In this document: positions 3,972 to 57,787 of the stretch, piece after piece
How positions within the stretch are numbered: position 1 is the first letter of the stretch
Layout: each line of letters starts with the position of its first letter
From: Morinoia aosen
Taxonomy: Eukaryota > Arthropoda > Malacostraca > Amphipoda > Talitridae
Length of the DNA stretch: 64,000 nt
Assembly (NCBI GenBank): GCA_030386875.1
Contig: CM059564.1
Location: 69,025,436 to 69,089,435, forward strand
Reading direction: 5' to 3'
Position numbers and translations under genes: made by a program
The notes under the pieces: model-generated
Told to the model about the DNA's origin: nothing
Seen by the model: the letters and a program-made list of their open reading frames with translations, nothing else
The model's database searches: none

Positions 3972-4006
3972 TATCGGTTTCGTAAGCGACGGCGCCTGAC
4001 TCGCTC

Positions 4007-4951: not shown

Positions 4952-4996
4952 TTTGGTTAATTTTGACACAGGTGTTTCCAAATGGTGCAAATGGTG

Positions 4997-19213: not shown

Positions 19214-19366
19214 TTGGTGGCCATTCTCCTGATTGGAGTGGCCGGGGCAGCCAAGTACACAACCATCGTCTCCTCTCTGGCCATTGTGTCCGGCATCATA
19301 GCCTGTGGCGTGTTCTTGCTTATGATCTCCATTGTTGGGCTTGCTGCTGCTGCTCGCCATCACCAG
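19214..19366 (+). CDS. Tetraspanin (TSPAN13/31 class), exon with TM1 end and TM2
   Basis: This exon of 51 codons starts after TTGTATGCACAG and ends at CACCAG before GTTAGT; both ends are in phase 0. It encodes LVAILLIGVAG, the inner half of TM1, then a very short extracellular loop, TM2 and the tail RHHQ. In vertebrate TSPAN13 and TSPAN31 the matching stretch is TLVSLLLIGI to VKHHQ, with the next exon also starting just after HHQ. The class has a very small first loop, which is seen here too. The exon encoding the first ~20 residues (MVCGGF-like start in relatives) was not found upstream in the window. It is either outside the window or too short and diverged to see. Confidence 0.9.
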
Positions 19367-24685: not shown

Positions 24686-27600
24686 TTTGCTGCATTGCAC
24701 ACTGTGAAGTTTGCTGCATTGCACACTGTGAAGTTTGCTGCATTGCACACTGTGAACTTTGCTGCATTGCACACTGTGAACTTTGCTGCATTGCACACTG
24801 TGAACTTTGCTGCATTGCACACTGTGAACTTTGCTGCATTGCACACTGTGAACTTTGCTGCATTGCACACTGTGAACTTTGCTGCATTGCACACTGTGAA
24901 CTTTGCTGCATTGCACACTGTGAACTTTGCTGCATTGCACACTGTGAACTTTGCTGCATTGCACACTGTGAACTTTGCTGCATTGCACACTGTGAACTTT
25001 GCTGCATTGCACACTGTGAACTTTGCTGCATTGCACACTGTGAACTTTGCTGCATTGCACACTGTGAACTTTGCTGCATTGCACACTGTGAACTTTGCTG
25101 CATTGCACACTGTGAACTTTGCTGCATTGCACACTGTGAACTTTGCTGCATTGCACACTGTGAACTTTGCTGCATTGCACACTGTGAACTTTGCTGCATT
25201 GCACACTGTGAACTTTGCTGCATTGCACACTGTGAACTTTGCTGCATTGCACACTGTGAACTTTGCTGCATTGCACACTGTGAACTTTGCTGCATTGCAC
25301 ACTGTGAACTTTGCTGCATTGCACACTGTGAACTTTGCTGCATTGCACACTGTGAACTTTGCTGCATTGCACACTGTGAACTTTGCTGCATTGCACACTG
25401 TGAACTTTGCTGCATTGCACACTGTGAACTTTGCTGCATTGCACACTGTGAACTTTGCTGCATTGCACACAGTGAACTTTGCTGCATTGCACACTGTGAA
25501 CTTTGCTGCATTGCACACTGTGAACTTTGCTGCACTGCACACTGTGAACTTTGCTGCACTGCACACTGTGAACTTTGCTGCACTGCACACTGTGAACTTT
25601 GCTGCACTGCACACTGTGAACTTTGCTGCACTGCACACTGTGAACTTTGCTGCACTGCACACTGTGAACTTTGCTGCACTGCACACTGTGAACTTTGCTG
25701 CACTGCACACTGTGAACTTTGCTGCACTGCACACTGTGAACTTTGCTGCACTGCACACTGTGAACTTTGCTGCACTGCACACTGTGAACTTTGCTGCACT
25801 GCACACTGTGAACTTTGCTGCACTGCACACTGTGAACTTTGCTGCACTGCACACTGTGAACTTTGCTGCACTGCACACTGTGAACTTTGCTGCACTGCAC
25901 ACTGTGAACTTTGCTGCACTGCACACTGTGAACTTTGCTGCACTGCACACTGTGAACTTTGCTGCACTGCACACTGTGAACTTTGCTGCACTGCACACTG
26001 TGAACTTTGCTGCACTGCACACTGTGAACTTTGCTGCACTGCATACTGTGAACTTTGCTGCACTGCACACTGTGAACTTTGCTGCACTGCACACTGTGAA
26101 CTTTGCTGCACTGCACACTGTGAACTTTGCTGCACTGCACACTGTGAACTTTGCTGCACTGCACACTGTGAACTTTGCTGCACTGCACACTGTGAACTTT
26201 GCTGCACTGCACACTGTGAACTTTGCTGCACTGCACACTGTGAACCTTGCTGCACTGCACACTGTGAACCTTGCTGCACTGCACACTGTGAACCTTGCTG
26301 CACTGCACACTGTGAACCTTGCTGCACTGCACACTGTGAACCTTGCTGCACTGCACACTGTGAACTTTGCTGCACTGCACACTGTGAACTTTGCTGCACT
26401 GCACACTGTGAACTTTGCTGCACTGCACACTGTGAACTTTGCTGCACTGCACACTGTGAACTTTGCTGCACTGCACACTGTGAACTTTGCTGCACTGCAC
26501 ACTGTGAACTTTGCTGCACTGCACACTGTGAACTTTGCTGCACTGCACACTGTGAACTTTGCTGCACTGCACACTGTGAACTTTGCTGCACTGCACACTG
26601 TGAACTTTGCTGCACTGCACACTGTGAACTTTGCTGCACTGCACACTGTGAACTTTGCTGCACTGCACACTGTGAACTTTGCTGCACTGCACACTGTGAA
26701 CTTTGCTGCACTGCACACTGTGAACTTTGCTGCACTGCACACTGTGAACTTTGCTGCACTGCACACTGTGAACTTTGCTGCACTGCACACTGTGAACTTT
26801 GCTGCACTGCACACTGTGAACTTTGCTGCACTGCACACTGTGAACTTTGCTGCACTGCACACTGTGAACTTTGCTGCACTGCACACTGTGAACTTTGCTG
26901 CACTGCACACTGTGAACTTTGCTGCACTGCACACTGTGAACTTTGCTGCACTGCACACTGTGAACTTTGCTGCACTGCACACTGTGAACTTTGCTGCACT
27001 GCACACTGTGAACTTTGCTGCACTGCACACTGTGAACTTTGCTGCACTGCACACTGTGAACTTTGCTGCACTGCACACTGTGAACTTTGCTGCACTGCAC
27101 ACTGTGAACTTTGCTGCACTGCACACTGTGAACTTTGCTGCACTGCACACTGTGAACTTTGCTGCACTGCACACTGTGAACTTTGCTGCACTGCACACTG
27201 TGAACTTTGCTGCACTGCACACTGTGAACTTTGCTGCACTGCACACTGTGAACTTTGCTGCACTGCACACTGTGAACTTTGCTGCACTGCACACTGTGAA
27301 CTTTGCTGCACTGCACACTGTGAACTTTGCTGCACTGCACACTGTGAACTTTGCTGCACTGCACACTGTGAACTTTGCTGCACTGCACACTGTGAACTTT
27401 GCTGCACTGCACACTGTGAACTTTGCTGCACTGCACACTGTGATTTTGCTGCACTGCACACTGTGAACTTTGCTGCACTGCACACTGTGAACTTTGCTGC
27501 ACTGCACACTGTGAACTTTGCTGCACTGCACACTGTGAACTTTGCTGCACTGCACACTGTGAACTTTGCTGCACTGCACACTGTGAACTTTGCTGCATTG

Positions 27601-27703
27601 CACACTGTGAACTTTGCTGCATTGCACACTGTGAACTTTGCTGCACTGCACACTGTGAACTTTGCTGCATTGCACACTGTGAACTTTGCTGCACTGCACA
27701 CTG
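24686..27703. repeat. 24-bp satellite, right part of the array
   Basis: There are about 125 copies. Up to about 25530 the unit has CATTGC; beyond that almost all have CACTGC, with a mix of both at the far right. Local blocks of identical variants occur, for example five neighbouring units with GAACCTTG near 26250-26350. The array ends about 76 bases before the next tetraspanin exon. Frames of around 1000 codons on both strands are artefacts of the unit length. Confidence 0.97.
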
Positions 27704-27779: not shown

Positions 27780-27893
27780 GTGATGCTGTTCTTCTACATG
27801 ATTGTGCTGTTCATCATCTTCGTGATCCAGTTTGGTGTTGCATGCGCCTGCCTCGCTATCAACGAAGATCAGCAGGCAGTTGCTCTGGACAAG
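27780..27893 (+). CDS. Tetraspanin (TSPAN13/31 class), exon with TM3
   Basis: This exon of 38 codons starts after CTTCGTGCAG. It encodes [20 protein letters not shown]3, followed by [20 protein letters not shown], the start of the large extracellular loop. TSPAN13/31 proteins have nearly the same VLLFFYMI...CACLALN pattern directly after HHQ. The donor is taken as AAG before GTGGTT; using the next codon (GTG before GTTATT) would add one valine, which relatives often have. The phase is 0 at both ends either way. The satellite array ends only 76 bases upstream, leaving little room for the branch point and pyrimidine tract, both of which must lie outside the repeats. Confidence 0.92.
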
Positions 27894-29342: not shown

Positions 29343-29459
29343 GGTTGGAGCTCGTCGACTAAAACACTGAAAGAGGAGGCGCAAATTGTGTACCACTGCT
29401 GCGGCTTTGAAAATTATACAAACAACGGCACTGACATGGACCATCCTTCCTGTTTTGGG
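29343..29459 (+). CDS. Tetraspanin (TSPAN13/31 class), exon with CCG motif
   Basis: This exon of 39 codons starts after TGCTGCCCACAG and ends before GTGAGG; both ends are in phase 0. It encodes GWSSSTKTLKEEAQIVYHCC and continues GFENYTNNGTDMDHPSCFG. The HCCG block is the tetraspanin CCG signature of the large extracellular loop. NYT and NGT are candidate N-glycosylation sites. The preceding GW and the helix before CCG match the TSPAN13/31 layout. Confidence 0.92.
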
Positions 29460-31994: not shown

Positions 31995-32159
31995 GTCACC
32001 AACGACTCAGGCGACTCATGCTGCCCTGATGTCCCGGAGGAGAATTGCTGCATGGACGATAGTTGCAAGTGCCCGCTGTGCCGGCCCATCCTGCTGACGG
32101 CGGTGCGCAAGGGCTTCAGCGCTGTCGGTGGAGTTGGGCTCTTCTTCTCCTTCACTGAG
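31995..32159 (+). CDS. Tetraspanin (TSPAN13/31 class), exon with loop end and TM4 start
   Basis: This exon of 55 codons starts after CATCTTGGCCAG and ends at GAG before GTGGGC; both ends are in phase 0. It encodes the second half of the large loop, with SCCP, NCCM and SCKCPLC, and then FSAVGGVGLFFSFTE, the start of TM4. GVGLFFSFTE is the diagnostic block of TSPAN13/31. Together with the previous exon the loop has ten cysteines, more than the usual four to eight. NDS is a further possible glycosylation site. Two downstream terminal exons (36806 and 50358) both fit its donor in phase. Confidence 0.94.
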
Positions 32160-32660: not shown

Positions 32661-35592
32661 GCTATGGTATTGCCTCTCCCTAGTTGCATGATGGTGTGCA
32701 GGCTGCTGCAGTATTGCCTCACGCTGGTCACGTGATGGTGTGCAGGCTGCTGCAGTATTGCCTCACGCTGGTCACGTGATGGTATGCAGGCTGCTGCAGT
32801 ATTGGCTCACGCTGGTCACGTGATGGTGTGCAGGCTGCTGCAGTATTGGCTCACGCTGGTCACGTGATGGTGTGCAGGCTGCTGCAGTATTGCCTCACGC
32901 TGGTCACGTGATGGTGTGCAGGCTGCTGCAGTATTGCCTCACGCTGGTCACGTGATGGTGTGCAGGCTGCTGCAGTATTGCCTCACGCTGGTCACGTGAT
33001 GGTGTGCAGGCTGCTGCAGTATTGCCTCACGCTGGTCACGTGATGGTGTGCAGGCTGCTGCAGTATTGCCTCACGCTGGTCACGTGATGGTGTGCAGGCT
33101 GCTGCAGTATTGCCTCACGCTGGTCACGTGATGGTGTGCAGGCTGCTGCAGTATTGCCTCACGCTGGTCACGTGATGGTGTGCAGGCTGCTGCAGTATTG
33201 CCTCACGCTGGTCACGTGATGGTGTGCAGGCTGCTGCAGTATTGCCTCACGCTGGTCACGTGATGGTGTGCAGGCTGCTGCAGTATTGCCTCACGCTGGT
33301 CACGTGATGGTGTGCAGGCTGCTGCAGTATTGCCTCACGCTGGTCATGTGATCGTGTGCAGGCCGCTGCAGTATTACCTCACGCTGGTCACGTGATGGTG
33401 TGCAGGCTGCTGCAGTATTGCCTCACGCTGGTCACGTGATGGTGTGCAGGCTGCTGCAGTATTGCCTCACGCTGGTCACGTGATGCTGTGCAGGCTGCTG
33501 CAGTATTGCCTCACGCTGGTCACGTGATGGTGTGCAGGCTGCTGCAGTATTGCCTCACGCTGGTCACGGGATGTTGTGCAGGCTGCTGCAGTATTGCCTC
33601 ACGCTGGTCACGTGATGGTGTGCAGGCTGCTGCAGTATTGCCTCACGCTGGTCACGTGATGGTGTGCAGGCTGCTGCAGTATTGCCTCACGCTGGTCACG
33701 TGATGGTGTGCAGGCTGCTGCAGTATTGCCTCACGCTGGTCACGTGATGGTGTGCAGGCTGCTGCAGTATTGCCTCACGCTGGTCACGTGATGGTGTGCA
33801 GGCTGCTGCAGTATTGCCTCACGCTGGTCACGTGATGGTGTGCAGGCTGCTGCAGTATTGCCTCACGCTGGTCATGTGATGGTGTGCAGGCTGCTGCAGT
33901 ATTGCCTCACGCTGGTCACGTGATGGTGTGCAGGCTGCTGCAGTATTGCCTCACGCTGGTCATGTGATGGTGTGCAGGCTGCTGCAGTATTGCCTCACGC
34001 TGGTCATGTGATGGTGTGCAGGCTGCTGCAGTATTGCCTCACGCTGGTCATGTGATGGTGTGCAGGCTGCTGCAGTATTGCCTCACGCTGGTCACGTGAT
34101 GGTGTGCAGGCTGCTGCAGTATTGCCTCACGCTGGTCACGTGATGGTGTGCAGGCTGCTGCAGTATTGCCTCACGCTGGTCACGTGATGGTGTGCAGGCT
34201 GCTGCAGTATTGCCTCACGCTGGTCACGTGATGGTGTGCAGGCTGCTGCAGTATTGCCTCACGCTGGTCACGTGATGGTGTGCAGGCTGCTGCAGTATTG
34301 CCTCACGCTGGTCACGTGATGGTGTGCAGGCTGCTGCAGTATTGCCTCACGCTGGTCATGTGATCGTGTGCAGGCTGCTGCAGTATTGCCTCACGCTGGT
34401 CACGTGATGGTGTGCAGGCTGCTGCAGTATTGCCTCACGCTGGTCACGTGATGGTGTGCAGGCTGCTGCAGTATTGCCTCACGCTGGTCACGTGATGGTG
34501 TGCAGGCTGCTGCAGTATTGCCTCACGCTGGTCACGTGATGGTGTGCAGGCTGCTGCAGTATTGCCTCACGCTGGTCACGTGATGGTGTGCAGGCTGCTG
34601 CAGTATTGCCTCACGCTGGTCACGGGATGTTGTGCAGGCTGCTGCAGTATTGCCTCACGCTGGTCATGTGATGGTGTGCAGGCTGCTGCAGTATTGCCTC
34701 ACGCTGGTCACGTGATGGTGTGCAGGCTGCTGCAGTATTGCCTCACGCTGGTCACGTGATGGTGTGCAGGCTGCTGCAGTATTGCCTCACGCTGGTCACG
34801 TGATGGTGTGCAGGCTGCTGCAGTATTGCCTCACGCTGGTCACGTGATGGTGTGCAGGCTGCTGCAGTATTGCCTCACGCTGGTCACGTGATGGTGTGCA
34901 GGCTGCTGCAGTATTGCCTCACGCTGGTCACGGGATGTTGTGCAGGCTGCTGCAGTATTGCCTCACGCTGGTCATGTGATGGTGTGCAGGCTGCTGCAGT
35001 ATTGCCTCACGCTGGTCACGTGATGGTGAGCAGGCTGCTGCAGTATTGCCTCACGCTGGTTACGTGATGGTGTGCAGGCTGCTGCAGTATTGCCTCACGC
35101 TGGTCACGTGATGGTGTGCAGGCTGCTGCAGTATTGCCTCACGCTGGTCATGTGATGGTGTGCAGGCTGCTGCAGTATTGCCTCACGCTGGTCACGTGAT
35201 GGTGTGCAGGCTGCTGCAGTATTGCCTCACGCTGGTCATGTGATGGTGTGCAGGCTGCTGCAGTATTGCCTCACGCTGGTCACGTGATGGTGAGCAGGCT
35301 GCTGCAGTATTGCCTCACGCTGGTTACGTGATGGTGTGCAGGCTGCTGCAGTATTGCCTCACGCTGGTCACGTGATGGTGTGCAGGCTGCTGCAGTATTG
35401 CCTCACGCTGGTCACGGGATGTTGTGCAGGCTGCTGCAGTATTGCCTCACGCTGGTCATGTGATGGTGTGCAGGCTGCTGCAGTATTGCCTCACGCTGGT
35501 CACGTGATGGTGTGCAGGCTGCTGCAGTATTGCCTCACGCTGGTTACGTGATGGTGTGCAGGCTGCTGCAGTATTGCCTCACGCTGGTCACT
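32661..35592. repeat. 44-bp tandem array with E-box palindromes
   Basis: There are about 66 units of 44 bp in the intron before the canonical last exon. Each unit contains CTGCAG, TATTGCCTCACGCTGG and TCACGTGA. The last is an 8-bp palindrome with a CACGTG E-box at its centre. About one unit in six has CATGTG, and a few have CACGGG. The grouped variant CACGGGATGTTG recurs at intervals that are whole multiples of 44 bp, which points to amplification of multi-unit blocks. Short frames of 71 codons recurring in it are by-products. Confidence 0.97.
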
Positions 35593-36805: not shown

Positions 36806-36880
36806 TTCCTGGGCGTGTGGCTCACTGTGCGCTATCGGAACCAGCGCGATCCCGTGGCCAACCCTTCTGCTTTCCTCTAA
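36806..36880 (+). CDS. Tetraspanin canonical last exon (TM4 end and C-terminal tail)
   Basis: This exon of 24 codons plus stop follows CCGCTGTCCTGCAG. It starts FLGVWLT, completing TM4 after FSFTE, and ends [17 protein letters not shown] and TAA. The ending is almost the canonical TSPAN13/31 C-terminus (YRNQKDP...NPSAFL in vertebrates), so this exon is clearly real although it is too short to stand out as a frame. The phase is 0, matching the donor of the exon at 31995-32159. The intron between them holds the 44-bp E-box array. It makes an isoform of about 207 residues plus the missing N-terminus. No clear AATAAA was identified close downstream. Confidence 0.93.
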
Positions 36881-38477
36881 AGCGCTCCTGCTCCACGCCA
36901 TAGCCTTACACTCTCTCTCTGAGGGGTCTCTGTCTGCAACACTCTTCAGGGTCCTAATCTAACTCCCCTTTGTTCATACATCATACTCCTAATCAACGTT
37001 AATTAACTCGGTTGTCTGTCTACTCAATGTACGTGCTGCACACTCCACGTTCTTCAGGGATCCACTTTCTCTTTCCCGTAGTTTACTTTAGTTCTACTCT
37101 TTTAACAGAAGTTTTGCCTTCCTTTATTCCCTTGCTCTCATTGTTATCTCGCGCTCCCAATGGAGCGTGTTCTGATTTCGTGTGTTGAAATTTTGGTGCG
37201 TTTAAAGTAATTTTGGTCATGAATTGTGGTTTATCGTTGCCGTATTTTAGTTCCTTGTTTGATACTAGATATTGCTCTGAAGCGCCTTAATTTCAGTTCA
37301 CAAAGGTAAACTTTTCATTGTCTTCTCCTTAGCATTTTTTTAATTCTAGGACAGTTATGTACATACGGCAATTCGCGCTGACATCCATGCTCCTTCATTC
37401 AATCATGCTCTCTGAGTCAGTCTTGGGCTGTCATGAATGTAGCTCACTATTCCATTCACTCTCATCATCAATCGCGGTGGAATTTTTCTGGAACTGAAAT
37501 TGTGTGCGCAGCGAGCCCTAGTTCTCGTGGTGTGCGGCTTGTCAATTGTGGTGTAACTCGTATAATGCTCTCTACGAGTCGGCTCTCATTGAAGCAGTGG
37601 CGGGTCGAAGTTTGAAGCTTGTCACGTAGTGCAAATTTAGCTCCCCTGGGCCTAGTGTAGGTTGCAACTTGTTTATCCTCGTGTCTATCCATCGCTATAT
37701 TCTTATGATCTCAGTGCGTCGAGATACTGGGCATCCGTGGCTTTGCAGGAGCTAATTCCAGCCTATGGGTCATATTTCACCCATGTTTTATAATTTCTTC
37801 GGTATTGTCCTGTAACAGCGATAGGTTTGGCTCTGTCTCAAAACCAAATTTTATATTTGGCCTTTAACATTTCCATACGTAAAATGAAAATATGCCAAAG
37901 CATGCTTTCCTCTCTTGAATTAGCTTGAGGTTCGGGTGCCCAGAATATAGTTGCACTGTCTATGAAGATGTTCATGTAATTATTTTTAACTGCTGTTGAA
38001 CATTATCGTAGCTTCCTGGTTTCTTCATTTTGCCAGCTTGCTAGTAAAAGTAGCTGTATCAATTTTATTAGAGGCTTAACTTACGTCTTGCTGTTTTACC
38101 TTTCAGCACATATTACTTAAAGCTGTTTCCTTTATGTCATTCTTTTCCCGGTTCGCTTTGTTAGACTATCGCTTCCCTTATGTCAGCACTGGAATATTTC
38201 AACATGCCACTTCTAATGTTTGCTGCTGGTTGTAGCTCGTTTAGGCCACTCACTTGCTGGGTCTTTGATATCTGAGACGATGTTTTGATCAGGAGTAGTA
38301 GTCTCCTATCTATGAGTCTTGCCTCGCCGTAGTGCTCTTACGATGTTCGGCCGTTTTCGTTGAAAAATATCAAGAAGTTAGAGTTCGGCGCAGTTAACTT
38401 GTTTTGATAGAAAACTCGGGTGCAAAAAGTGCTGGTGTATCCTCGATTTAAAAATGTGTTGTCAAAACTGAGCCTCA

Positions 38478-38926
38478 TCAGGGGGAGACAACCATTGTAT
38501 TTGTGGGTATTAGCGTTCTCGGGGTTGGAGATACGAGCTCCCGATCTGGGGGTTTAGGCAGGCTTTCCTTTCGTTAAGTAGAATAGGTTTTTGTTTCTTT
38601 TCCAATTTTTCAACTTTTCAAAGCAGTTCAAGTTCATCACTTGTAAAATTGAGAAGAAATTCAACTCAGCTTTGCGGTCCATCAATTTTTGTTTCACTGC
38701 TGTCCTGTTTTTCAGCCCTTACTAATTTCTTCTTCAATTTTTATGTGATTTTATAATGCTGTTTCAAACACTTACTGTTTTTATGCGCAGGAGATCTAGT
38801 GTTGGAACACACCTTGTGCATATTCTATTCTCTTTACTCCATACTTGATGGTGCCTTCTTTTTTTTCCTCTCTTTGGGACACTTTTGTTGTGGTTAGAGA
38901 GGCTTAAACTAACTCCTCTAATCTGA
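38478..38926 (+). repeat. Dispersed repeat, copy 2 (older, longer form)
   Basis: This is a diverged copy. It keeps TCAGGGGGAGACAACCATTG, the tract CTGCTGTCCTGTTTTTCAG, ACACACCTTGTGCAT and GAGGCTTAAACTAACT, with a tail of TCTAATCTGAT. It contains about 100 bases more than the compact copies. Sense orientation to the tetraspanin. Confidence 0.85.
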
Positions 38927-41747
38927 TGTCGAAACTGAGATCCAGAGAAATTTACAGACTTTGAGGTTTCCTCTCTTGTGTCTGAAAACCTAACTTTTTT
39001 CCGTTGATATTGAGAGGTTCGTGTGTAGTTTGTTTAGTTATGCGCTTCTTGAGTTTTACCTGTTTTCCTATATTTAAATATTGGTCTCATTTTTTTAAGC
39101 AAGTGGCAAAGAGCAAACGCTTGTCAGGCTACTGGGTAAAAGCTCCAAGTTTCCCATTTATTTCAGATAGCTCTTTACAGCCATAGTGATCGCCTTCCTT
39201 TTAGTGTCTTTAGTGCAGGTTGAAGTCATTTTTTTATTGCGATGTACTCTTATTACTTCACTTTACGGAAACAGATCGTCGAAATTGAAAATGCGAATTT
39301 TATAACACCTTATTTGCTCATGGGGCATCTTTTTTGACATCCTGTCTAGAGTTTCGGTCATTTTCTTACTTCTAAGCAGTAGGGATGCAATGCTCTGCTT
39401 CATCTGTCTCTAGTACAGCCAGTCGGAGAATTAAAAGTGCGCTGTACATCGCACATCGACCTAGCGTCGTGTGATAGAAAAACAATGAGATCAAATATAT
39501 GAGTAAGTTTTTAGTATTTCTATGTGGCGACTTTTCGTTTTAATGTTATGCATCCATTTGACGTCTCTTTGTTGGTCTCAGAGCTTTTGATTTTAAAGTT
39601 CACCACTACTGACCATTTGAGTATATTTGTTTGACGAAGTTCTTGTGGGTCGTCTCAGTCGTGTTCATTCTATATTCTAAAGTAGTTGGAAGTATCTTTT
39701 TTATATATTTAATTCCTGTAAAGTGTGGCTGTAGTTCTGTTCGTAGTTTTAATATCACATATAAGTTGCGTTTTAATCATATCAATGCTATATGAACAAA
39801 TTCTTGCTAGTCGTGACAAGGCCTTTGATTAAGTCAGCTAGCTGTAAGCGATGTTTTGCGAATTTAGCTCAGTGTGCTGGTGGGCTTAAACGGAACAATA
39901 ATTTGTGTCGCTTCGACATTATTCAGTTCGTTAGGCTGGGTGACCTCGTAAAAAGTGGACGTTTTGCTTTAAAACGTAAATCTAACATTACAAACATTTG
40001 AGTTAAGAGTTGAAAAGAGCGATACACCCAATTTGTAAATGCTGTCATTTCCTTGAAAGAGGGGGTTCATTTTCTACAACGAAGCGTACTTTAATTGTTC
40101 TCATGGGAAATTATTTGAACGGTCTTTGATCTATGATAAAGTTGTAGGGGAAGGTAATTCATGGCGTGGAGTTTGTTCAATGCGTGTACCAGTTGCCTTC
40201 TAACGATGGGCTGCTGCTAAGCGTAGGGCTTTAGATACGGTGTGCACTTCGCGACCCTTGCTCTTGAGTTGAGCCGAGCGTTCTGAAGCTGGTCGAGGTA
40301 GTGTTGAGGTCCAGCGGCGTGGTTTGGCGCTTTCTGGGAGGTGTCGCAGTTACAGCATCCTTAATACACTGGTATACATTTTGTCGCAGGCTCATTTGTA
40401 TACGTCTAACAAGAGCCGTGAGCGTTCAAACTAGAGTGACTCGAGGCAGTGTTGCGGCAACCATAATGGATGAGCAAAGGGCAATACCACAGTTGATGAC
40501 TGCTAACTGCACTCTAACCGCTCTCAGACTGGATGAAGAGTTGCAAGGCACTCTTGTGTGGTGCCTCAAATTCGATTATAGCAAATAGGGAACTTTGTAT
40601 ACACGCTCTCAAATATGAACCTCAGTGGTGAGCCTCGTATACACGTGTCGCGCCTCACCACCAGAATGTCCCCCCAGCGTGAGCGGCGCTTTATTCTGAC
40701 ACCTAACAGGCCCCTTCAGTCGCTCCTGCGTACCTTGATTCTGAGTCGAAGTAGTGCCACATCGTCTTCTAACTCGATCGAAATCAAAATAGCGATTGTG
40801 GCTGATAATTTACTATGTCTACCTTATTATATATCTCTTGGGTTTATTTTATATTTATGATTCTGTTCTTACCTTTGAATCAGTATGAACATACGTTTAT
40901 TAAGTTGAAACGTGGTATCATATCGGGTTGTCACAGAATAAACACCGGAACTTTCTCGACATTCCTTTGTGTCCAAACGTGCCCTTGAAAAATGTCATCC
41001 TCTTTCTTGCCTGTCGGACATATATTTTCGTGTTCTCGCTCGTTTTTCTAGTGGTTTGAATTTATAAGAAAGAATGTGGTTCTACTCCTACCAACGTCAC
41101 TTCTGTGTTTCCTTTTGGCTAGTTAAAGTAATTCGTTTTTCGCTCCCAAGTGCTAGTGGCGTGCGCCATGCAAGGGCAATCTGTTGTTCGTTTATTGCTA
41201 CAGTGTCCAGATGATGCGGTATTTGGTATCTATATGGTGGTATTAAAATAGCTCGCTACATACATTCTGTATAGCGAGTCGCTTCTAATTTGATCAATGT
41301 CTATCTTTTAGAACACTGCTTTGAAGCAACGAACTGACTTTCCGCAAAGCACATTTCATTTCGGTGCCCGGCTTGATTAGAATTTTACTGTTAGGTCACA
41401 TAAACCTCCCCTGAAATCTAACTACAAATTCTAAGAATTATATAGAAAGTAGAGGATAATTGTTGTAACTGCTATTAATTGACTTTGTGGCATTGTAAAC
41501 TTTAGATACTGAACTCGACGCTGGATCTTGTGTCGCTTTTCAGTACATCGCATTCTTGTTTTTGATCAGTTGCTGACTTGGTGGTGTCCATCCTTCTTCT
41601 CTGGGCATTATTTCGTGCATTTCTAGTTGAATAGTTTTTTAGTACACTGGTCCAAACTGTTCTTTAAAATCTAAAACTTAGTATCGAAGAGGTTGCGTTC
41701 GGGGAGAAGTAGTACTTTTCAATCACTCTTTTCATTACCACTGGACT

Positions 41748-42025
41748 CGTTACCACTCATTACCACTCCCGGCCACATTGTCACTCATTACCACTCCCGG
41801 CCACATTACCACTCATTACCACTCCCGGCCACATTACCACTCATTACCACTCCCGGCCACATTACCACTCATTACCACTCCCGGCCACATTACCACTCAT
41901 TACCACTCCCGGCCACATTACCACTCATTACCACTCCCGGCCACATTACCACTCATTACCACTCCCGGCCACATTACCACTCATTACCACTCCCGGCCAC
42001 ATCACCGCTCATTACCACTGCCGGC
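41748..42025. repeat. 28-bp tandem array
   Basis: About nine units are built of CATTACCACT and CCCGGCCACATTACCACT. The copies are nearly identical, with sequence changes mainly at the two edges. A 143-codon frame through it is a by-product. It lies between the two tetraspanin last exons. Confidence 0.95.
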
Positions 42026-43678
42026 CTCGTCTCGATGAGACCTATGCCTAAAGCGAGTACCGTCGCACCTCCTGATGCTGTCGTGCGCCTCCGGACCGTC
42101 GTTGGACTGTCTTCTTTCCACTAACCAGTAACAGCTTTCAGTGGATGTATGAGGTAACCTTATCTCTAGCACGTTACTCCTGCTCGTTGTAATTGTTTTG
42201 GTTGGCGTTACTTCGTTTGACCCTGCTTCACTCACCCCAGCCCCTGTACGGTGCCCTGTTATGATTTTTTTCACCTGCGTGTGGGTCAGTTTTGTGACTT
42301 GTTTGGAAGTGAAGCTGATGAATCTCGATACTAGCACCCTTGTACCCTAATATAACTGTTTTAATTGCTTTGAGCGGTGCACGGTTAATGACGCATTCCG
42401 ACATTCTGGTTCAATTTTTTGGTGCAGAATATTTGCGTATCTAATACCTGCAGTTAGCGATGCGCTTATGACGTCCAAGAAAATTTTCTTCGTTGTACCA
42501 GTTAGACCGAGCGCTTGCTTCGGCTCCTCATTTTCCTGAACTCAGATTTCCCACCCGTGCCAGGGCTCCTATTGAAATGAGCGCTCTCCAAATTTACTCA
42601 TTGTAATTATTCTCACTGCTCAAGAGAGTCACAAGTAGGTTTAGTTTTAGGGTTTAATAAGTTTTGTTCTTGTTTATAATTTCTCCCTCTAAAATGACGC
42701 CTGTTCCATCAGATCGGCGTCCGCTAGCTCGAATGCTACCGTGCCGTTTCAATCTTCTATTCCTTTCATTCTTTTAAAAAAAAGTGCGCTGAACCGGATG
42801 GTCGTTCTGATCATTTACCAGGCTTTTTCTCATGAAATGAAAGTCTCCTAACCTCTTGCGGATGGTGGGATGCAGTTGTGTCTGCTCTGTCCATGTTAGA
42901 ATGTCATTTTTGAAATATTCTTGGAGAATGTTTCAGCATGCTACTGAAGCCAATTGCCAATATGCTCAGGAGTTGATAGACTTTGATTGTTTCACTTCTG
43001 ATTTCTTGCGCTCTCTGCTACCGATAAGTAGACTGGATACACGAACGTTTCATTAGCGGTTTATTTATTTTAACCTAATCTTTTTCTACTATCGAGCTGC
43101 TGTCAGACTAGACGTATCCTGATATAAATATCTCCCTGGCACAAATATTGAACCAATACCATTCACTTGGCTTACAACAGCTTTAAATTTAATGTAAATC
43201 ACTGCAGAATAATAATATTGGTAGACATGAAAGTTTCTGACCTTTCTCTTATTCCGTGGACCAGAAAGCATTAGTTTTCCACTGCTTGTGAGGTGAGACG
43301 AGCTCGGCACAATGAGACCTGCTTGATACTACGCAGACAATACAGCAATCTTGAGCAACTGGCGGTACATGCGTGCTGGGGTGCTAATTTGAGAACTCGT
43401 TGGCTTCATTTTCACCTTGCATGTTGTTTTTTGTGTCCCTCCCATGGTTTGTTTGCATGCCTCCATTTTTGTGCTTGTATTTATTGCTGCTTCGTTGTTG
43501 ATATTTTCCTTTTCTTCACGTAACACTGATGTACCAACCACTGCTGTAGATCTATCCACTTCCCGCATTTTAACTCATCCTGCTTCTATTTGCCCTTTAG
43601 TATTCGCTGTACACTTTTCTTTAATGGTTACCATGCCTTACAAATCATTATAATCATTGTCGCCTGTGGAATTGTTAA

Positions 43679-44148
43679 GGAGATCATCCGGGTTTGAGAC
43701 CTTTTTTCGTCCGATTCGTTTGAAAATTGGCCAGTATATGTCTTTGGTGAAAGTGAACCTTTTTTACTCCTGCCATTTTTTCGATTTAGGCCTTATTTTT
43801 TTTTTGACGAAAAATGTGTTTTTGGTATATTTTTCAAATTGGAACCCCTCCTTCAGTTTTGATGCTAGAACAAAAAGAAAGACAGTTTTAGAACCCTTGG
43901 AACATTTCTAACAAACGTTCGTTCTGTTTATTTTCCATTTCCCATTTGTTCTCTTTTTATATGGGGGTCAAAATTGGAAAAATTGAAATATTTTGGTCCT
44001 TTCATTCATTTTGGTCCTTCGGGAGGGGGGAAATTATTGTCGTAGCGCCAGAAAATTTTAGGAACGAATAGTCCACCAACTAAGGGTCCTTCTACAACAA
44101 AAACATGCAAAATGACCATGACATCGCAAGGGCCCCCGGATGATCTCC
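43679..44148. mobile_element. TTAA-flanked MITE with perfect 14-bp ends
   Basis: TTAA lies at 43675-43678 and 44149-44152. The ends read GGAGATCATCCGGG in both orientations without mismatch. It is 470 bp long with no coding frame of note. TTAA flanks suggest a piggyBac-type non-autonomous element. It is a different family from the 16-21 kb elements internally, but it shares TTAA targeting. Confidence 0.9.
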
Positions 44149-44261
44149 TTAATGTTCATGGTTAAACTGTATGTGTTTAGTACTTTTTACTATGCTATTT
44201 TTTGTGCTGCACGTAATACTGTTGAGATATCGTCTCTACTGTTTATTTTTTTTTTACCCCT

Positions 44262-44596
44262 CAGAATTAGCGCTCCCAGGGGGGAAATGTTAAGGCCCGA
44301 GCTGAGAGTTAGGCAAGCCTTCATGTTATTAAAATAAAAGGTTTTTTGCTATTTTAAGGACCACCTTTTTCGGTTCACTGCTGTCCTGTTTTTCAGAACC
44401 ATTTACTTTATTCTTAAACTTTTATCTTGTTTCATGAACTTCTTTCCCAATTTACTGTTTTTATGCCCCTTCTGCATAGATTCCGCATTCCCTAATATCC
44501 GTACTAAATGGTGCCTTCCTCCTTCCTCTCTTCGATACGCTCTTTTTTGTAGCGGTTAGGGAGGCTTAAACTAACATATACTCTAATCTTGTTCAT
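44262..44596 (+). repeat. Dispersed repeat, copy 3
   Basis: It lacks the leading hairpin and starts at CTCAGAATTAGCGCTCCC. It keeps AATAAAAGG, CTGCTGTCCTGTTTTTCAG and GATTCCGCATTCCCTAA, and ends CTTAAACTAACATATACTCT. Sense orientation to the tetraspanin. Confidence 0.9.
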
Positions 44597-44616
44597 TTTT
44601 TATTATTTCTCTTGTC

Positions 44617-44988
44617 ATGGGGATACCAATATTGCATCGATTTAAATAAGCACTCACTGGGGGAAAATGTGAGGTCACGAGCTGAGAGTTAGGTAGGTAT
44701 GCCTCTTTTTGATGAAAAAATGCTTTGTTTTGTTAAGGAACATCTATTTTCAACTCATTTCTGTCCTGCTTCTCAACACCTCTTGCTTTCTTCGTCAACT
44801 TTGATCTTGTTTCTTAACTTCCTTCTCAATTGACTCTTTCTATGCACAGGGGATGCTGTGCGGGAACACACCTCGGGCGTAGAGTCTGTTTCCTTTGTTC
44901 CATACTAAATGGCGCTTTCATCATTCCTCTCTTTGAACATCTTTGTTGTGGTAAGGGAGGCTGAAACTAACGTATCAATCAATCTGAT
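44617..44988 (+). repeat. Dispersed repeat, copy 4
   Basis: It follows copy 3 by about 20 bases in the same orientation and is more diverged. It keeps GATACCAATATTGCATC at the hairpin position, GAGCTGAGAGTTAGGTAGG, TTTCTGTCCTGCTTCTCA and a tail AACGTATCAATCAATCTGA. A further isolated tail fragment (CTAACTAATAATCTAATC) lies near 45060. Confidence 0.85.
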
Positions 44989-45668
44989 AATTTTTTATTT
45001 ATTTATTTCAACTAATGCATACGACTATCGTTTATTTCAACGGCTTGAAACACACCCTAACTAATAATCTAATCTAATCTTGAAACACACTGATGGAAAA
45101 ATAGTGTACATTTCCATCGTGACTAGTTTCTTCGCCCGAAATGCGATGCGAACGTTGTTGGATTACTGTATATACACAAATTAGAAAACAATTAAGCACA
45201 TATTGCTCTCAAGGGAACACTTCTCATCAAGATCACTAGAATTATAACAGATTTCTGGCACCTGACGTGTGAAGGATAGTTTAGTCTAAAATGTCACTGA
45301 TATCCATTTGTGTTAACTTATTGATTTTCCTGAACGCTGGAGCGGCGGCTGTCCTGCTATAAACTTATTCTAAAGGTTGCTGTGAAATATTTTACGACGC
45401 AATTGTTGTACTAATTGAACGGAGGATGAGAAAAGTTATTCACTTGAATATTTTGTTCACAAAGCTCTCTCAATTACAAGACTAGGACGAGGGGAATGAC
45501 GCGCACGATTTTTAAAATTGCATATCACAAACGACGTATTGAGCCTCGATCCATCTTCAGCCAGATTTTTGAAAGAATAATACCAATGATATAAAATGGG
45601 GATAATTTGAATAAGTTTTGCTTGAATCGCAGGTGTACAAAAAATGGCGGAAAATGCGTCGGTCAAGA

Positions 45669-45741
45669 GATACGATCGAGTAGTGAAGATACGACCGAGT
45701 AGTGAATACATCAGACATCAGATACGACCGAGTAGTGAATT
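45669..45741. repeat. Short repeat GATACGACCGAGTAGTGAA, three copies
   Basis: The copies are near 45670, 45690 and 45721, the first with one change. The function is unknown. Confidence 0.85.
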
Positions 45742-46391
45742 TTAAGAAAAAATTAATTAAAAATTTCGAACTATGCATCCCATGACAAATGTCATCCTAC
45801 CTGCCGACAATGTACAACAGATGAGCTCTTTGCATGCCGTTGATATTAGATTGAAACGTACATGTATAGACGGTTTCTAAAAATATGCTCATTTATAGTA
45901 TTGATTGAACCTACGATAGAAAAAGTAAAATCAGGAGTCAGCACAGTTGAACCTTATTGTAGTTATTCAGTTCTTATTCGTCAACACAGTTGAACCTTAT
46001 TGTAGAATGGAATGAGTGACAGTCACGTTCCAGTTCTAGTGACTGATTCCCGCGTGCTCGGCTCGTGACACTCGATGTGCGGTTCGGAGAATCGACGTAC
46101 GTCGATGCGCATCGTCCACCTCGGAATTCAAAGACGATATTAAAACAAATGCATATGGAAATGTCTTTGTACTGGAAAAAGAATCCAATTATTTGCATTA
46201 TTGCGAAAAAAATATTGCAAGCGATGCATAAGAGAGGAATAATGAAGTCAGAGGTAACTGTTCACCCTTTAGTTTTTGATTGCTGCCCGGACAATTGCAA
46301 CCATAAAATCCATTAATGTAGGACAGCATTTACAACAACAAAAAATTGTATGTTTTGCTTTGGAAATTTTTTGAGTAAATATAGACACCTC

Positions 46392-46740
46392 TCAGAGGGA
46401 TACAACTATTGTATCTATGGCAATAAGCACTCCCAGGAGGGAAATGTGAGGGTCCGAGCTGAGAGTTAGGTAGGCCTTCTTTTTGTTGAAATACAATGTT
46501 TTTGTTATGTTGAGGACCATTTTTTTCGATTCACTGCTGTCCTGTTTTTCAAAACCTAGTACTTTCTTCTTCGACTTTTTTCTTGTTTCACAATCTTCTT
46601 TCTTAACTTACTGTTTCTATGCCCTTTCTGCATAGATTCTGCGTTCCCTTAACTCCATTCTAAATGGTGCCTTTCTCCTCTTCGGATCGCCTTTGTGACG
46701 GATAGGGAGGCTTAAAGTAACTAATAATCTAATCTAATTT
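46392..46740 (+). repeat. Dispersed repeat, copy 5
   Basis: This is a full-length copy with TCAGAGG, the intact hairpin GATACAACTATTGTATC, CTGCTGTCCTGTTTTTCA and a tail of CTAATAATCTAATCTAAT. Sense orientation to the tetraspanin. Confidence 0.92.
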
Positions 46741-49229
46741 TAAGAAATTAACATTTTTATGCCGAATATTCAACATCAACCTTTCCATGTTTTTACTTAA
46801 ACTTATTAGTTGACGTGTTTTCATGCACATGAATTGCACATTCAAGTGAACTTCGTGAGAGGTAGAGAGGTGTTACATGCGACGTAGCGACTCTGACGTA
46901 GCAGTTGACGTCACGCTTCTGTCACGCCGTTCTTCTGACATCACGCTTGATATTTTGTTCTGAACACCGTACACTCTTGGTGGTCATCGCGTGTGTGTAT
47001 ATCATAGTACATATTAAATTTTTTTGTAGTGCGCTATAGCATTCTTCTATACAGCTTTTGAACTGAGTGGTCCAGCATCGGTGGTGTACTGCATGCTTTG
47101 TTTTTGTGCGTATCAGTTGTTTTATTTATACTACTAACTGAAACCATTTGCATTTTTAAGCCTTACTGGTCTTCGTACGCCAACTTACTGGCCTTCGTAT
47201 GCCAAATCGGCGTAGACTTGTGTGTTTTCTCATGATTGTAAACAGTGGTATGTTTTGATGTGGTATTACTCATTGTTGTAAAATATCCGTGACAGCTTAC
47301 AGCTTTCTGGATTGCCGTCTTGTGAAAACTTATATGTGGCTAATTTATATTTTTTGTAGTTTCAGTTCTTGAACAGCAGGTTCCCTATTGTTTGTCTCTG
47401 TACTAGTTTGTTCTATAACTTACCGTGAAGATGCATTAGACGTGGGAGTGTTAATTGAGGGGATATTACGTTGAAGAATGGGACGTGTTAGTTTTATGGA
47501 ATTTTATTATTAATGTAATAGCTTTGAGGTAAGTACCTTATTATTTTACCCCTCAATGTTCGAGTAATCCTGAGACTATCATTAATTATATTGTTCGTTT
47601 CAAAGCCATAGATTTACGTAACAAACACCCTAGTTATGTTATTGTTAATGTTCCAGTTCAAAAAGCGTTGAGACGAACTATTGCTGCATTTCATAAAATT
47701 CTTAGTTTCTCAGCATTACTTGACGATAATATTGAAAATCGATTACTTCAACCACAAGAATGAAAACTAATCAGTTACATGCTTGTGGCTCAGAGTAAAT
47801 TCAAAGGATTTTGAATCAGCTGTGAGGAATAGTTAGGTAGAAAGTTTCGATAACGTAAAACTGCTCGACTAAATCGTTCACTAAGCTCATGCAGTGCACT
47901 GAACTTGTGTTATCACAGTTCGTAAATGGGTCACTCCTTATCAAGGGGTCCAATACTCTCTACCCCACCACGTCGGATTTTCGTAAAATTTGGTACGCTT
48001 GTTGACACGTCGCCCAAATTAGCCGGAGAAAATTTTCAGCTCTAGCTGCTCCAGTTTCCAAGATACTCCAAACCAATTTATTACTCCGAACACCAGAACT
48101 GCGACTGGCAGTTCCACAGAGGCCTTTTTACATACATATTCCAGGCTTCTCCTCCCTATTGGAGGGTAGCCGACAGCAGGCCACACTCATTACTCTTAGT
48201 CACTTAGAGGCGAGAGAGGCCGAACTGGTCGCACCAGACGGCCAATTTTTAGTGGCTGAAATACCAGAGGCATTTTTAGTGGCTGAAAATAAGTTCGGGG
48301 TCACTTTTTTAGCGAAGTTCTCATAATTAAATCGGTTTCAACAGCGGCGGAGTAGATTTTCGACGAATAAAGATGTTCTATGCGAAAAATATCTTGAACC
48401 TGGGCTGCGTAGACGATCCAGAATATTTTCAGGTGATAAAGGCTCATCATAGCAGCACTGGCTGATGTTACGGGAATTTTTTGCAGTTCTTAAAGTTTCT
48501 GAAAATTTTGTAATCTTTTTCATAACTGATTACATTTTAAAACTAGTGGGAAAAATGACCCAGATTCAGTTAGTCGAAGCAATTATGAACTGGAAAAAGA
48601 CCCATCTAAATTCCTGTGTTAAATTCTCAGTTAGTCCGGTGTTAGAAGTGAAAACCTGAATACTGTATCTTGGAAATAGAAGCAGTTTCAGAACTGAAAC
48701 TTTTCTAATGCCCGTGTCAACTAGTCTGCAGAATTGCAGCGAAAATTCGAGAAAACACAGATTTGACTGATGTATAAAAACGTGAGCTCTGATGTTAAAT
48801 TGCTAGAACTTAAGGGTTATTAATTGAATTAATGTTCTGCGGTGTAACACGTGCACTTCTTCTCAAGCGTAGAAATCCCAGCTAAAAATTAGAAACTAAG
48901 TTAGTGTCATTTATTATCAGAGCTCGAGTTTTAGAGGCCCTGCTTGTATTCAATATTCTTCATTTAACAATGAATTACATTATAATTTTTTAATTTTTGA
49001 AAAATAACCATGCAAAGTTTTCTTCAAACCCAAGCTACCCTTTGAATCGGTAACGCTTACTGCATGAGTCAGTTGCTTTTTGGCTAAGTAGGCCTCATCT
49101 TTCATTCTTCATTTCTATGCCTTTCTCTCGAGGGAAACCGTGAGACAGGCCTGCATAAGATTCTTCGTCTGTTATTTTTTTTCCTACGTCACCTTTTCAT
49201 CGCTTGCACCATTTTTTACCAACGTTCCG

Positions 49230-49566
49230 TCAGGGAGAGGCAACTAATGTATCTATGGGAATTGGCGCCTTCTGGGGGAATATGTGAGGTCCCGAGTTAA
49301 GAGTTAAGTAGGCCTTCTTTTTATTGAAATGACATTTTTTTTTGTTTTGTTACGGACTATCTTTTTCGGTTCACTGCTGTCCTGTTTTTCAGCACCTTCT
49401 ATTTTGTTTCATGAACTTCTTTCTCAACTTACTGTTTCTATGTCCCTTCTGCATAGATTCCGCATTCCCTAATCTCCATACTAAATGGTGCATTCCTCCT
49501 TCCTCTCTTCGATACCCTCTTTTTTTTTTTAGCGGTAAGGGAGGCTTAAACTAACATATCTAATCT
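49230..49566 (+). repeat. Dispersed repeat, copy 6
   Basis: It starts TCAGGGAGAGGCAACTAATG and keeps CACTGCTGTCCTGTTTTTC, GATTCCGCATTCCCTAATC and GAGGCTTAAACTAACATATC. Sense orientation to the tetraspanin. Confidence 0.92.
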
Positions 49567-49714
49567 ACAGTATAATCTCTTCTTGCCAACGTTACATGCT
49601 GTACCTAACGAGACTAAGTTACATGCTGTACGCCTTTTGGTGCCATGTAAACTTGTCATTCGCTTGGATTCTCTGATTATCGACTAAGCGAGAACGGAGA
49701 TTAAACTTCGATTG

Positions 49715-50057
49715 GTACAACTATTGTATCTATGGGAATTAGCGCTCCCAGGGGAACTATGTGAGGGCCCGAGCTAAGGTTAGGTAGGCTTCCTTTTTGT
49801 TGTAATAAAATAGGTTTTTGTTTTGTTACGGACCATCTTTTTTCGGTTCACTGCTGTCCTGTTTTTCAGCACCTACGACTTTCTTTTTCAACTTTTTTCT
49901 TGTTTCATGAACTTCTTTCCTAGCTTACTGTTTCTGTGCACTTTGTGCATAGATTCCGCGTTCCCTCAATTCCTTACTAAATGGTGCCTTCCTCTTTCCT
50001 CTCTTGGAACATCTTTGTCGTGGTTAAGGGAGGCTAAAACTTTCTTATATAATAATA
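49715..50057 (+). repeat. Dispersed repeat, copy 7
   Basis: It starts at GGTACAACTATTGTATC with GCGCTCCCAGGGG and keeps CACTGCTGTCCTGTTTTTC. It ends AAAACTTTCTTATATAATA, the same tail type as copy 1. It lies only 300 bases before the alternative last exon of the tetraspanin. Confidence 0.92.
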
Positions 50058-50357
50058 GTAACTTCGATTGATTATAGTTAATTCCGATATAAACAGGTTT
50101 AGGTCGGAAGGAACTATAGCGAGTACGAAGCTGTTTTCTGCGTTGCTTACCCACTTGTAAATGACCATTGGAGTTCTATGGAAAAGCTAGGTGAAAAATA
50201 TTAACCCCCACTAAAACCTAACTGGCATTCATTTTAGAGCACAAATCGTAGGTATTAATCATATTGTTGAAGAGCTGTGGAACTCGGGAGATAATTCATT
50301 ATCCTTGGTACCAAGTGTAGTATGGAGGGACCTCGCTAAAACATGTCTGTTGTGCAG

Positions 50358-50438
50358 GTGCTTGGCTTCTTCCTGGCTCGCACGTACCGGCATCAGATCA
50401 ACCCTTACCTGTCGACTGAAGAGAGCCGCCTGCAGTAA
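50358..50438 (+). CDS. Tetraspanin alternative last exon (different TM4 end and tail)
   Basis: This exon of 26 codons plus stop follows ATGTCTGTTGTGCAG. It encodes VLGFFLARTYRHQ, then INPYLSTEESRLQ and TAA. It fits in phase 0 onto FSFTE at the end of the 31995-32159 exon and completes TM4. It shares the layout LG..L...YR.Q..P with the exon at 36806 but has another tail, lacking NPSAFL. The simplest reading is a duplicated terminal exon used as an alternative to the first, joined over an 18.2 kb intron. It could instead be the decayed or sole end of an unseen neighbouring copy, but no other tetraspanin exons lie between. Transcript evidence would settle its use. Confidence 0.85.
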   Translation: MLGFFLARTYRHQINPYLSTEESRLQ

Positions 50439-51917: not shown

Positions 51918-51923
51918 AATAAA
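51918..51923 (+). terminator. Candidate poly(A) signal AATAAA
   Basis: This is a plus-strand AATAAA about 1.5 kb after the alternative tetraspanin stop and just past the 27-bp array. It is a weak call, as the hexamer is common in AT-rich DNA. Confidence 0.3.
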
Positions 51924-57014: not shown

Positions 57015-57614
57015 CTAGCGAGGAACACAGTGAGGTCTGGGTGGCGAAGGAGGGGGTGGAGAAACTGGGGATGGAGGGGGAGTAATTTGGCAACGACTAT
57101 GGGAAGCGTGCCGACAGTTGCCGGGGGACGAGGAGGAGTGTGGGGAAGGCGTGTACTGCAGCTCGCTGTAGTGATCGTCAGGAGACGGGGAAGAGTGCGA
57201 GTATTCGGGAGAGTCTGACCCTCGTCCCGGAGCGGAGTCGCGGCTGAGGCCCTGCACCGCGCCGTAAGGCCCCGCGCCTCGTGACTGAGAAGGCCCAGGA
57301 TAATCGGCGTGATAGCCGCGCTCTGGGTACGGCTGGCAGGGCTTAAAATGTTGTTGTTGCAGCTGGTGCTGGTAACGTTGCTGCGGATGCGGGTGTATGC
57401 TGATGCTGGTGTGGCTGTCAGGCGGGAGAGGACGCTGCTGGTAGTCAGAGCAGCCTCTGGAACAAGAAGTGCCTCCCTCATCTTCGCTCTCAGTGAGGGG
57501 AGCTAGAGGGGCGTGGTCGGGGGGCAGCATGGTGGTATGGGTGGAATCACTCTGCAGGGTGCCGTTGTCACAGGCGGCTGGGTAGGCCTTCCTCTGCAGT
57601 GATTGGATGTACTC
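57015..57614 (-). CDS. Last coding exon of an unidentified protein, Pro/Ser/His/Gln-rich tail
   Basis: The exon begins after TTTTGTGCGCAG on the minus strand and runs 199 codons to a TAG. It starts EYIQSLQRKAYPAACDNGTL and then has an acidic patch TESEDEGG, a His/Gln-rich part (HPHPQQRYQHQLQQQHF, about 74-90) and a tyrosine-containing stretch YSELQY at about 149-154. It ends in SH3-ligand-like proline runs (ITPPPSPVSPPPPSPPRP). The sequence is GC-rich against AT-rich surroundings, and its frame stays open from the acceptor to the stop. No domain is recognised. The composition suggests a cytosolic signalling or scaffold tail of a receptor or adhesion protein, which is inference. Four dispersed repeats lie in the intron upstream. 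Confidence 0.75.
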   Translation of the reverse strand, partial: EYIQSLQRKAYPAACDNGTLQSDSTHTTMLPPDHAPLAPLTESEDEGGTSCSRGCSDYQQRPLPPDSHTSISIHPHPQQRYQHQLQQQHFKPCQPYPERGYHADYPGPSQSRGAGPYGAVQGLSRDSAPGRGSDSPEYSHSSPSPDDHYSELQYTPSPHSSSSPGNCRHASHSRCQITPPPSPVSPPPPSPPRPHCVPR

Positions 57615-57787
57615 CTGCGCACAAAAGAGCCACGATCGTCTAAAAGGTCATCAGGAAGAAAGTGCAAGCGCTATAAGATTATAATAATTATATTAGTGAA
57701 TTCAAGAAACCTCAGCCACAATAAAGACGATCTCAAGAGAGCGCAGATAAAGCACCATTTAGAATGGACTGAAGAACATGAGGTGTA

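What the first reader, a model, noticed from the sequence alone, without database searches (positions are those of the whole stretch)
36806..50438. Two alternative last exons in a TSPAN13/31-class tetraspanin
Seen: the TM4 exon at 31995-32159 ends in FSFTE in phase 0. Two downstream exons, 13.5 kb apart, both have good acceptors (GCTGTCCTGCAG and GTCTGTTGTGCAG), begin in phase 0 and complete TM4 with LG at the same place. One ends [17 protein letters not shown], the conserved family tail; the other reads ARTYRHQINPYLSTEESRLQ. Inference: a duplicated terminal exon lets one gene make two proteins that differ in the last part of TM4 and the cytosolic tail, the region that in tetraspanins governs sorting and partner binding.
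Basis: partly seen in the sequence, partly recalled or inferred. Interest (0 to 1): 0.75.

Follow-up and report, generated by a model that had tools for sequence, protein, structure and literature searches.

The report
Tetraspanin gene with two alternative tails
An animal gene for a small four-pass membrane protein carries two related final exons, so it can probably make two proteins that differ in the end of the last membrane helix and in the tail inside the cell; such swaps are a known theme in animal genes, and this looks like one more case that still needs RNA evidence.

Summary
The window carries five of an expected six coding exons of a TSPAN13/31-type tetraspanin, 19214-19366, 27780-27893, 29343-29459, 31995-32159 and a last exon, all joined in phase 0. 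There are two last exons, A (36806-36880, the family-type tail) and B (50358-50438). B is most likely a real, old, coding-constrained relative of A: it is second only to A among 3558 stop-free phase-0 readings after an AG, and 2 to 5 of 4000 random sequences do as well. Its first 16 codons match A at 12/16 second but 5/16 third positions, and 20 of 26 codons end in G or C where the flanks are 41% GC. tblastn finds no second set of upstream exons. Corrections: B's acceptor is the weakest of six scored (568 of 3271 AGs score better), and A has no AATAAA or ATTAAA for 2.5 kb, so B, if used, is probably minor or regulated, and A's 3' end is unclear. Use in RNA, conservation in relatives and changed sorting are untested. 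Kind: homologous C-terminal exon substitution, as in KRAS 4A/4B.

The parts
19214..19366 (+). coding exon: second half of TM1, short extracellular loop, TM2 (LVAILLIGVAGAAKY...ARHHQ); phase 0 on both sides
   Evidence: tblastn with recalled human TSPAN13, E 3.9e-11; splice sites gcacag|TTG and CAG|gttagt
27780..27893 (+). coding exon: TM3 ([38 protein letters not shown]), phase 0
   Evidence: tblastn E 1.4e-12; gtgcag|GTG and AAG|gtggtt
29343..29459 (+). coding exon: first part of large extracellular loop with CCG motif (YHCCGF), phase 0
   Evidence: weak tblastn hit, E 0.029; cccacag|GGT and GGG|gtgagg, in frame with its neighbours
31995..32159 (+). coding exon: rest of large loop and first half of TM4, ends FSFTE in phase 0; shared splice donor GAG|gtgggc
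   Evidence: tblastn E 7.1e-6; 0.6% of + strand GTs score better as donor
36806..36880 (+). alternative last exon [25 protein letters not shown], the family-type tail
   Evidence: tblastn E 1.9e-9, 20 of the 24 exon residues identical to the recalled human tail; acceptor behind 43 of 3271 AGs
50358..50438 (+). alternative last exon B: VLGFFLARTYRHQINPYLSTEESRLQ*, diverged tail; weak acceptor
   Evidence: chance tests; codon-position and GC3 tests; Pfam gain; acceptor behind 568 of 3271 AGs
39430..39435 (+). first ATTAAA downstream of exon A (possible poly(A) signal, 2.5 kb after the stop; first AATAAA at 40937; variants AATATA 37944 and AGTAAA 38043)
   Evidence: motif only
51918..51923 (+). 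first AATAAA downstream of exon B (possible poly(A) signal; variants TATAAA 51083, ACTAAA 51394, AATACA 51524)
   Evidence: motif only

Best explanation
One TSPAN13/31-type tetraspanin gene has two homologous, mutually exclusive last exons created by an old duplication of the terminal exon. Splicing the shared donor at 32159 to A (36806) gives the standard protein with the RNQxDPxANPSAFL tail. If the A acceptor or A's poly(A) site is passed over, transcription continues 13.5 kb and the same donor joins B (50358), giving a protein of the same topology with a changed end of TM4 and a different cytosolic tail. Shown here: two homologous phase-0 last exons, coding-type composition of B, and no second set of upstream exons found. 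Inferred: that A is the default because it is proximal and has the stronger acceptor, that B is regulated (for example by tissue), and that the tails differ in sorting or binding.
For: B is second only to A in the window; 2 to 5 of 4000 random sequences reach it. Third positions of the shared 16 codons are at background (5/16 alike) while second positions are kept (12/16); a neutral model started from A with the same 23 differences gives a stop-free reading with as high a score in 0.46% of 20,000 runs and with as many identities in 1.6%. GC3 20/26 against 41% flank GC, P 2.4e-4; 8 of 10 in the part of B beyond the similar region. Joined to the core, B raises the Pfam tetraspanin score from 62.0 to 67.4 bits, nearly as A does (67.8); intron read-through gives 62.9. 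Outside the gene's own exons, the best hit of A in the window is B and the reverse; the other exons find only chance-level hits (E 0.5 or more).
Against: No transcript evidence. B's acceptor is the weakest of six. Conservation of B in relatives unknown. A has no AATAAA/ATTAAA for 2.5 kb (about 1% by spacing alone), so A's 3' end is not clear. The codon-position test is partly circular, because B was found by protein similarity, and blastn of the two exons with their flanks reports nothing at E 1, so homology rests on the protein reading.
Confidence: 0.72

Rival explanations
1. B is a relic: an old duplicate last exon that was once used and is no longer spliced, or is spliced only as noise.
For: Weak acceptor (568 of 3271 AGs better); 13.5 kb distal; copies of a dispersed repeat between A and B, two of them just upstream of B (49230-49567 and 49716-50057).
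Against: Intact frame, AG and stop although silent positions are no longer alike, and coding-type GC3. A loss in the recent past would leave the same picture.
Confidence: 0.17
2. A is not a separate 3' end but a cassette exon with a stop: some transcripts run A and then join B as an untranslated last exon, and skipping A gives the B protein.
For: No AATAAA or ATTAAA for 2.5 kb after A; a moderate donor AAG|GTAAAC about 425 bases after the A stop (score 2.9).
Against: A stop so far upstream of a junction would be expected to mark the A message for decay (established knowledge), yet A carries the family-type tail.
Confidence: 0.07
3. B belongs to another, partial tetraspanin gene downstream (gene duplication rather than exon duplication).
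For: None found; exon B alone would not tell.
Against: tblastn with the recalled human protein and with the gene's own exons finds no second TM1-TM2, TM3, large-loop or TM4 exon beyond chance level (best 40 rows shown, E up to 10). A strongly diverged copy could be missed.
Confidence: 0.02
4. Chance resemblance of intron sequence.
For: 5 of 4000 and 2 of 4000 random regions do as well on the two scores.
Against: Separate support from GC3, also in the part of B beyond the similar region.
Confidence: 0.02

Closest known systems
TSPAN13/TSPAN31 and Drosophila Tsp97E (tetraspanins)
   Same: Protein core, CCG loop and the A tail; human TSPAN13 is listed with 6 exons (table in PMC6773723, passages seen).
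   Different: The variants listed there for human TSPAN31 are a deletion of exons 2-3 and an alternative splice site, and TSPAN13 has one form; none is a second last exon. The B tail is not the family-type tail.
Human Tspan6 isoform 3
   Same: Alternative splicing gives a tetraspanin with a changed end of TM4 and a different C-terminus (PMC6773723, passage seen).
   Different: There exon 7 is skipped and a stop in exon 8 is used, which removes half of TM4, together with an N-terminal truncation; here a homologous exon would keep TM4 whole.
KRAS 4A/4B alternative last exons
   Same: Two homologous, mutually exclusive last exons give two membrane-targeting tails on one protein (PMC9882654, passages seen).
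   Different: Unrelated protein; the paper suggests that exon 4A came from the last exon of NRAS, and states conservation for over 450 million years. Here neither use nor conservation is tested.
Tandem duplicated exon substitutions (human set of 236 events)
   Same: 77 of 236 swap one homologous C-terminal region for another; most events are ancient; transmembrane proteins are enriched (PMC9741552, passages seen).
   Different: The term TSPAN does not occur in that paper's main text; human set only.

Membership tests
Tetraspanin family (PF00335) | Profile match above the curated cut-off | tested here: met
   67.8 bits (A) and 67.4 bits (B), cut-off 32.1, although the first exon was not found
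Tetraspanin family (PF00335) | CCG motif in the large loop | tested here: met
   YHCCGF in 29343-29459
Tetraspanin family (PF00335) | Four membrane helices | tested here: inconclusive
   TM2, TM3, TM4 and the second half of TM1 are present; the exon with the N-terminus was not found
TSPAN13/31 class | C-terminal RNQxDPxANPSAFL (motif recalled) | tested here: met
   Exon A: 20 of 24 residues as in the recalled human TSPAN13 tail. Exon B does not carry the motif.
TSPAN13/31 class | Closer to TSPAN13/31 than to other tetraspanins over the whole protein | not tested
   No comparison or tree against other tetraspanins was made; 58% identity over TM3 and 45% over TM1-TM2 with the recalled human TSPAN13
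TSPAN13/31 class | U12-type intron, reported for Drosophila Tsp97E (intron 2) and its human counterpart TSPAN13 | tested here: inconclusive
   Reported in PMC2831892 (passage seen). The four donors seen here are GTTAGT, GTGGTT, GTGAGG, GTGGGC and no RTATCCTT occurs on the + strand of the window; the donor of intron 1 was not found and I did not map the fly intron onto this gene.
Alternative last exons from exon duplication | Two homologous terminal exons, same phase, each with acceptor AG and stop codon | tested here: met
Alternative last exons from exon duplication | Each exon has its own poly(A) site | tested here: inconclusive
   A: no AATAAA/ATTAAA for 2.5 kb; B: AATAAA 1.5 kb after the stop
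Alternative last exons from exon duplication | Both forms present in RNA | not testable with these tools
   no RNA data at hand

The most novel reading that the evidence does not exclude
The two tails are an old, conserved two-state switch: in this lineage a tetraspanin whose C-terminus is otherwise nearly fixed across animals (recalled, not tested here) is made with a second constrained tail in particular tissues, sending the same membrane scaffold to a different compartment or partner set.
Probability: 0.35. Interest if true: 0.5.

Novelty: new member of a known kind. Interest (0 to 1): 0.35.

Why it matters
If both exons are used, one gene offers a natural swap of only the end of TM4 and the tail, with the rest of the tetraspanin held constant, which is a clean way to ask what the TSPAN13/31 tail does. 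The event type itself is well known.

Tried and rejected
Looked for relatives in the collections open to me: with isoform A as query, viral contigs gave 2 pattern matches and genome contigs 26, none confirmed. These hold viruses, bacteria and archaea, so the blank says nothing about conservation in animals. Looked for exon 1 upstream of 19214: no convincing candidate. Looked for a third tail: none near B's score (next 21 on either score). Looked for DNA similarity between the A and B regions (exon plus about 1 kb each side): blastn reports nothing at E 1. Looked at the tails by eye for sorting motifs: no classical Yxxphi or dileucine motif and no cysteine in either (recalled motif knowledge, no call). 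T-rich motifs are denser after A (19 in 2.7 kb; window 3.9 per kb; after B 4 in 1.6 kb), which fits, but does not show, the ELAV route to distal last exons described in flies (PMC8055025, passages seen; it names no tetraspanin). Solved structures by sequence: only tetraspanin-15, weakly (E 0.0034 and 0.023), and the match stops before TM4. No structure was predicted: by its description that tool takes proteins read directly from DNA, not spliced ones. Literature: ten searches, seen as listings (12 of 310 papers shown); no title or abstract start shown reports alternative last exons in the TSPAN13/31 class. Passages of six papers were seen. The strings NPSAFL and RYRNQ occur in no held text. 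The library lacks most subscription papers, so this is weak evidence of absence.

Full report
What is there. The window (64,000 bases, 41.7% GC) holds one tetraspanin gene on the + strand. A tblastn with a human TSPAN13 sequence recalled from memory finds TM1-TM2 (E 3.9e-11), TM3 (1.4e-12), the first half of TM4 (7.1e-6) and the tail at 36.8 kb (1.9e-9); the large loop is weak (0.029), and the second tail at 50.4 kb appears only at E 2.0. Exon borders were set from splice sites: 19214-19366, 27780-27893, 29343-29459, 31995-32159, then A 36806-36880 or B 50358-50438; each is a multiple of three and joins in phase 0. The N-terminal exon was not found upstream and is probably outside the window. 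The spliced proteins match Pfam Tetraspanin at 67.8 (A) and 67.4 bits (B), the core without tail at 62.0, the core read into the intron at 62.9. The assignment to the TSPAN13/31 class rests on the recalled human protein and on the A tail (20 of 24 residues identical); no tree against other tetraspanins was made.

Is B more than chance. All AG dinucleotides were taken as possible acceptors and the next 16 codons scored against A's tail and against the recalled human tail. Of 1320 (+) and 2238 (-) stop-free readings, A is first and B second on both scores, B with 32 and 37, the next with 21. In 60 first-order Markov sequences of 128 kb per score, 1 reached 32 and 0 reached 37. For the region downstream of the TM4 exon, + strand, the only place where an alternative last exon can lie, 5 of 4000 and 2 of 4000 null sequences reach the observed scores. 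The null keeps dinucleotide content only.

Is B coding. Over the first 16 codons A and B share 25 of 48 bases: 8 of 16 first, 12 of 16 second and 5 of 16 third positions; 7 of 16 residues are identical. Third positions are at about the level of unrelated sequence while second positions are kept, as expected of an old duplication with both copies under constraint; because B was found by protein similarity this is partly circular. In a neutral model from A with the same number of differences (23), 48% of 20,000 runs have no stop, 0.46% also reach the observed similarity and 1.6% the observed identities. Third-position GC in B is 20 of 26 where flank GC is 41.3% (P 2.4e-4), against 18 of 24 in A and 0.56 to 0.78 in the four upstream exons; it is 8 of 10 in the last ten codons of B, beyond the region similar to A. 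This does not depend on the similarity search. blastn of the two exons with about 1 kb on each side reports no match at E 1, in line with age but also meaning that homology rests on the protein reading.

Is B part of this gene. Searching the window with its own exons finds no second copy of the TM1-TM2, TM3, large-loop or TM4 exon beyond chance level (non-self hits at E 0.5 or more); the best non-self hit of A is B (E 0.60) and of B is A (E 0.69). So B looks like a duplicated exon, not part of a duplicated gene in view.

What speaks against use of B. On a rough acceptor matrix written from general knowledge, A ranks behind 43 of 3271 + strand AGs and B behind 568; the other four acceptors of the gene rank behind 1 to 231. 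B is the distal exon, and the interval between A and B holds six copies of a dispersed repeat of about 350 bases, two just upstream of B (the 45 longest of 70 rows shown). After A there is no AATAAA or ATTAAA until 39430, about a 1% event for the spacing of these motifs in the window, though weaker variants lie at 37944 and 38043; after B the first AATAAA is at 51918. These facts make A the likely default and B, if used, a regulated or minor form, and leave A's 3' end open.

How it may work. The shared donor at 32159 joins A in the default case. When A's 3' end formation or acceptor is held back, RNA polymerase reads on and the donor joins B. In fly neurons ELAV proteins promote distal last exons by inhibiting proximal poly(A) sites (PMC8055025, passages seen); T-rich motifs are denser after A than in the window as a whole, which is only a hint. 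The products share topology: the best 19-residue stretch of TM4 is as hydrophobic in B as in A (1.75 against 1.55 on the Kyte-Doolittle scale). Three of the last six membrane residues differ (FLGVWL against VLGFFL), then a tail of similar length; what that does to sorting is inference.

Compared with what is known. C-terminal swaps of homologous exons are common among tandem duplicated exon substitutions: 77 of 236 human events (PMC9741552, passages seen). KRAS 4A/4B is a well-studied case with two membrane-targeting tails (PMC9882654, passages seen). A survey of human tetraspanin splice variants lists for TSPAN31 a deletion of exons 2-3 and an alternative splice site, for TSPAN13 a single form, and for Tspan6 an isoform with an altered end of TM4 and a new C-terminus made by exon skipping (PMC6773723, passages seen). 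My ten literature searches, seen as listings, showed no report of alternative last exons in the TSPAN13/31 class; the library is incomplete. Hence a new member of a known kind, of moderate interest.

Limits. The species is unknown to me, no animal sequence collection or RNA data could be searched, and the human comparison sequence was recalled. The step from 'constrained duplicate exon' to 'two functional isoforms' remains to be shown.

Noticed in passing
870-5047 (- strand): LTR-type retrotransposon, Ty3-like by its domain order (recalled): an open pol frame of 1065 aa (reverse transcriptase, RNase H, integrase; a protease match below its cut-off) and a 346-aa frame with DUF7041, probably gag. 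Described only.
   Followed up: partly
24686-27703 and 32667-35591: Very long, nearly perfect minisatellites inside introns of the tetraspanin gene: 24-bp unit x 126 (99% matches) ending 76 bases before the TM3 exon, and 44-bp unit x 66.5 (97%) between the TM4 exon and exon A.
   Followed up: no
30421, 38672, 44264, 44607, 46385, 49230, 49716, 57786, 58340, 59231, 59968 (approximate starts): Dispersed repeat of about 350 bases, copies about 65-88% alike on both strands, two of them within 1.2 kb upstream of exon B (45 longest of 70 rows). Class unknown.
   Followed up: no
introns of the tetraspanin gene, 19367-50357: Drosophila Tsp97E and human TSPAN13 are reported to carry a U12-type intron (PMC2831892), but the four donors seen here are not of the RTATCCTT kind: possibly a conversion to U2 type in this lineage; intron positions were not mapped.
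   Followed up: partly
57015-57647 (- strand): Open frame of 210 aa rich in proline and serine, no Pfam match at E 0.1; could be an exon of another gene.
   Followed up: partly
12302-12567 and 14882-15118 (+ strand): The end of the array at 9.6-12.4 kb (16-bp unit) is present a second time about 2.5 kb downstream, with the same following peptide reading.
   Followed up: no
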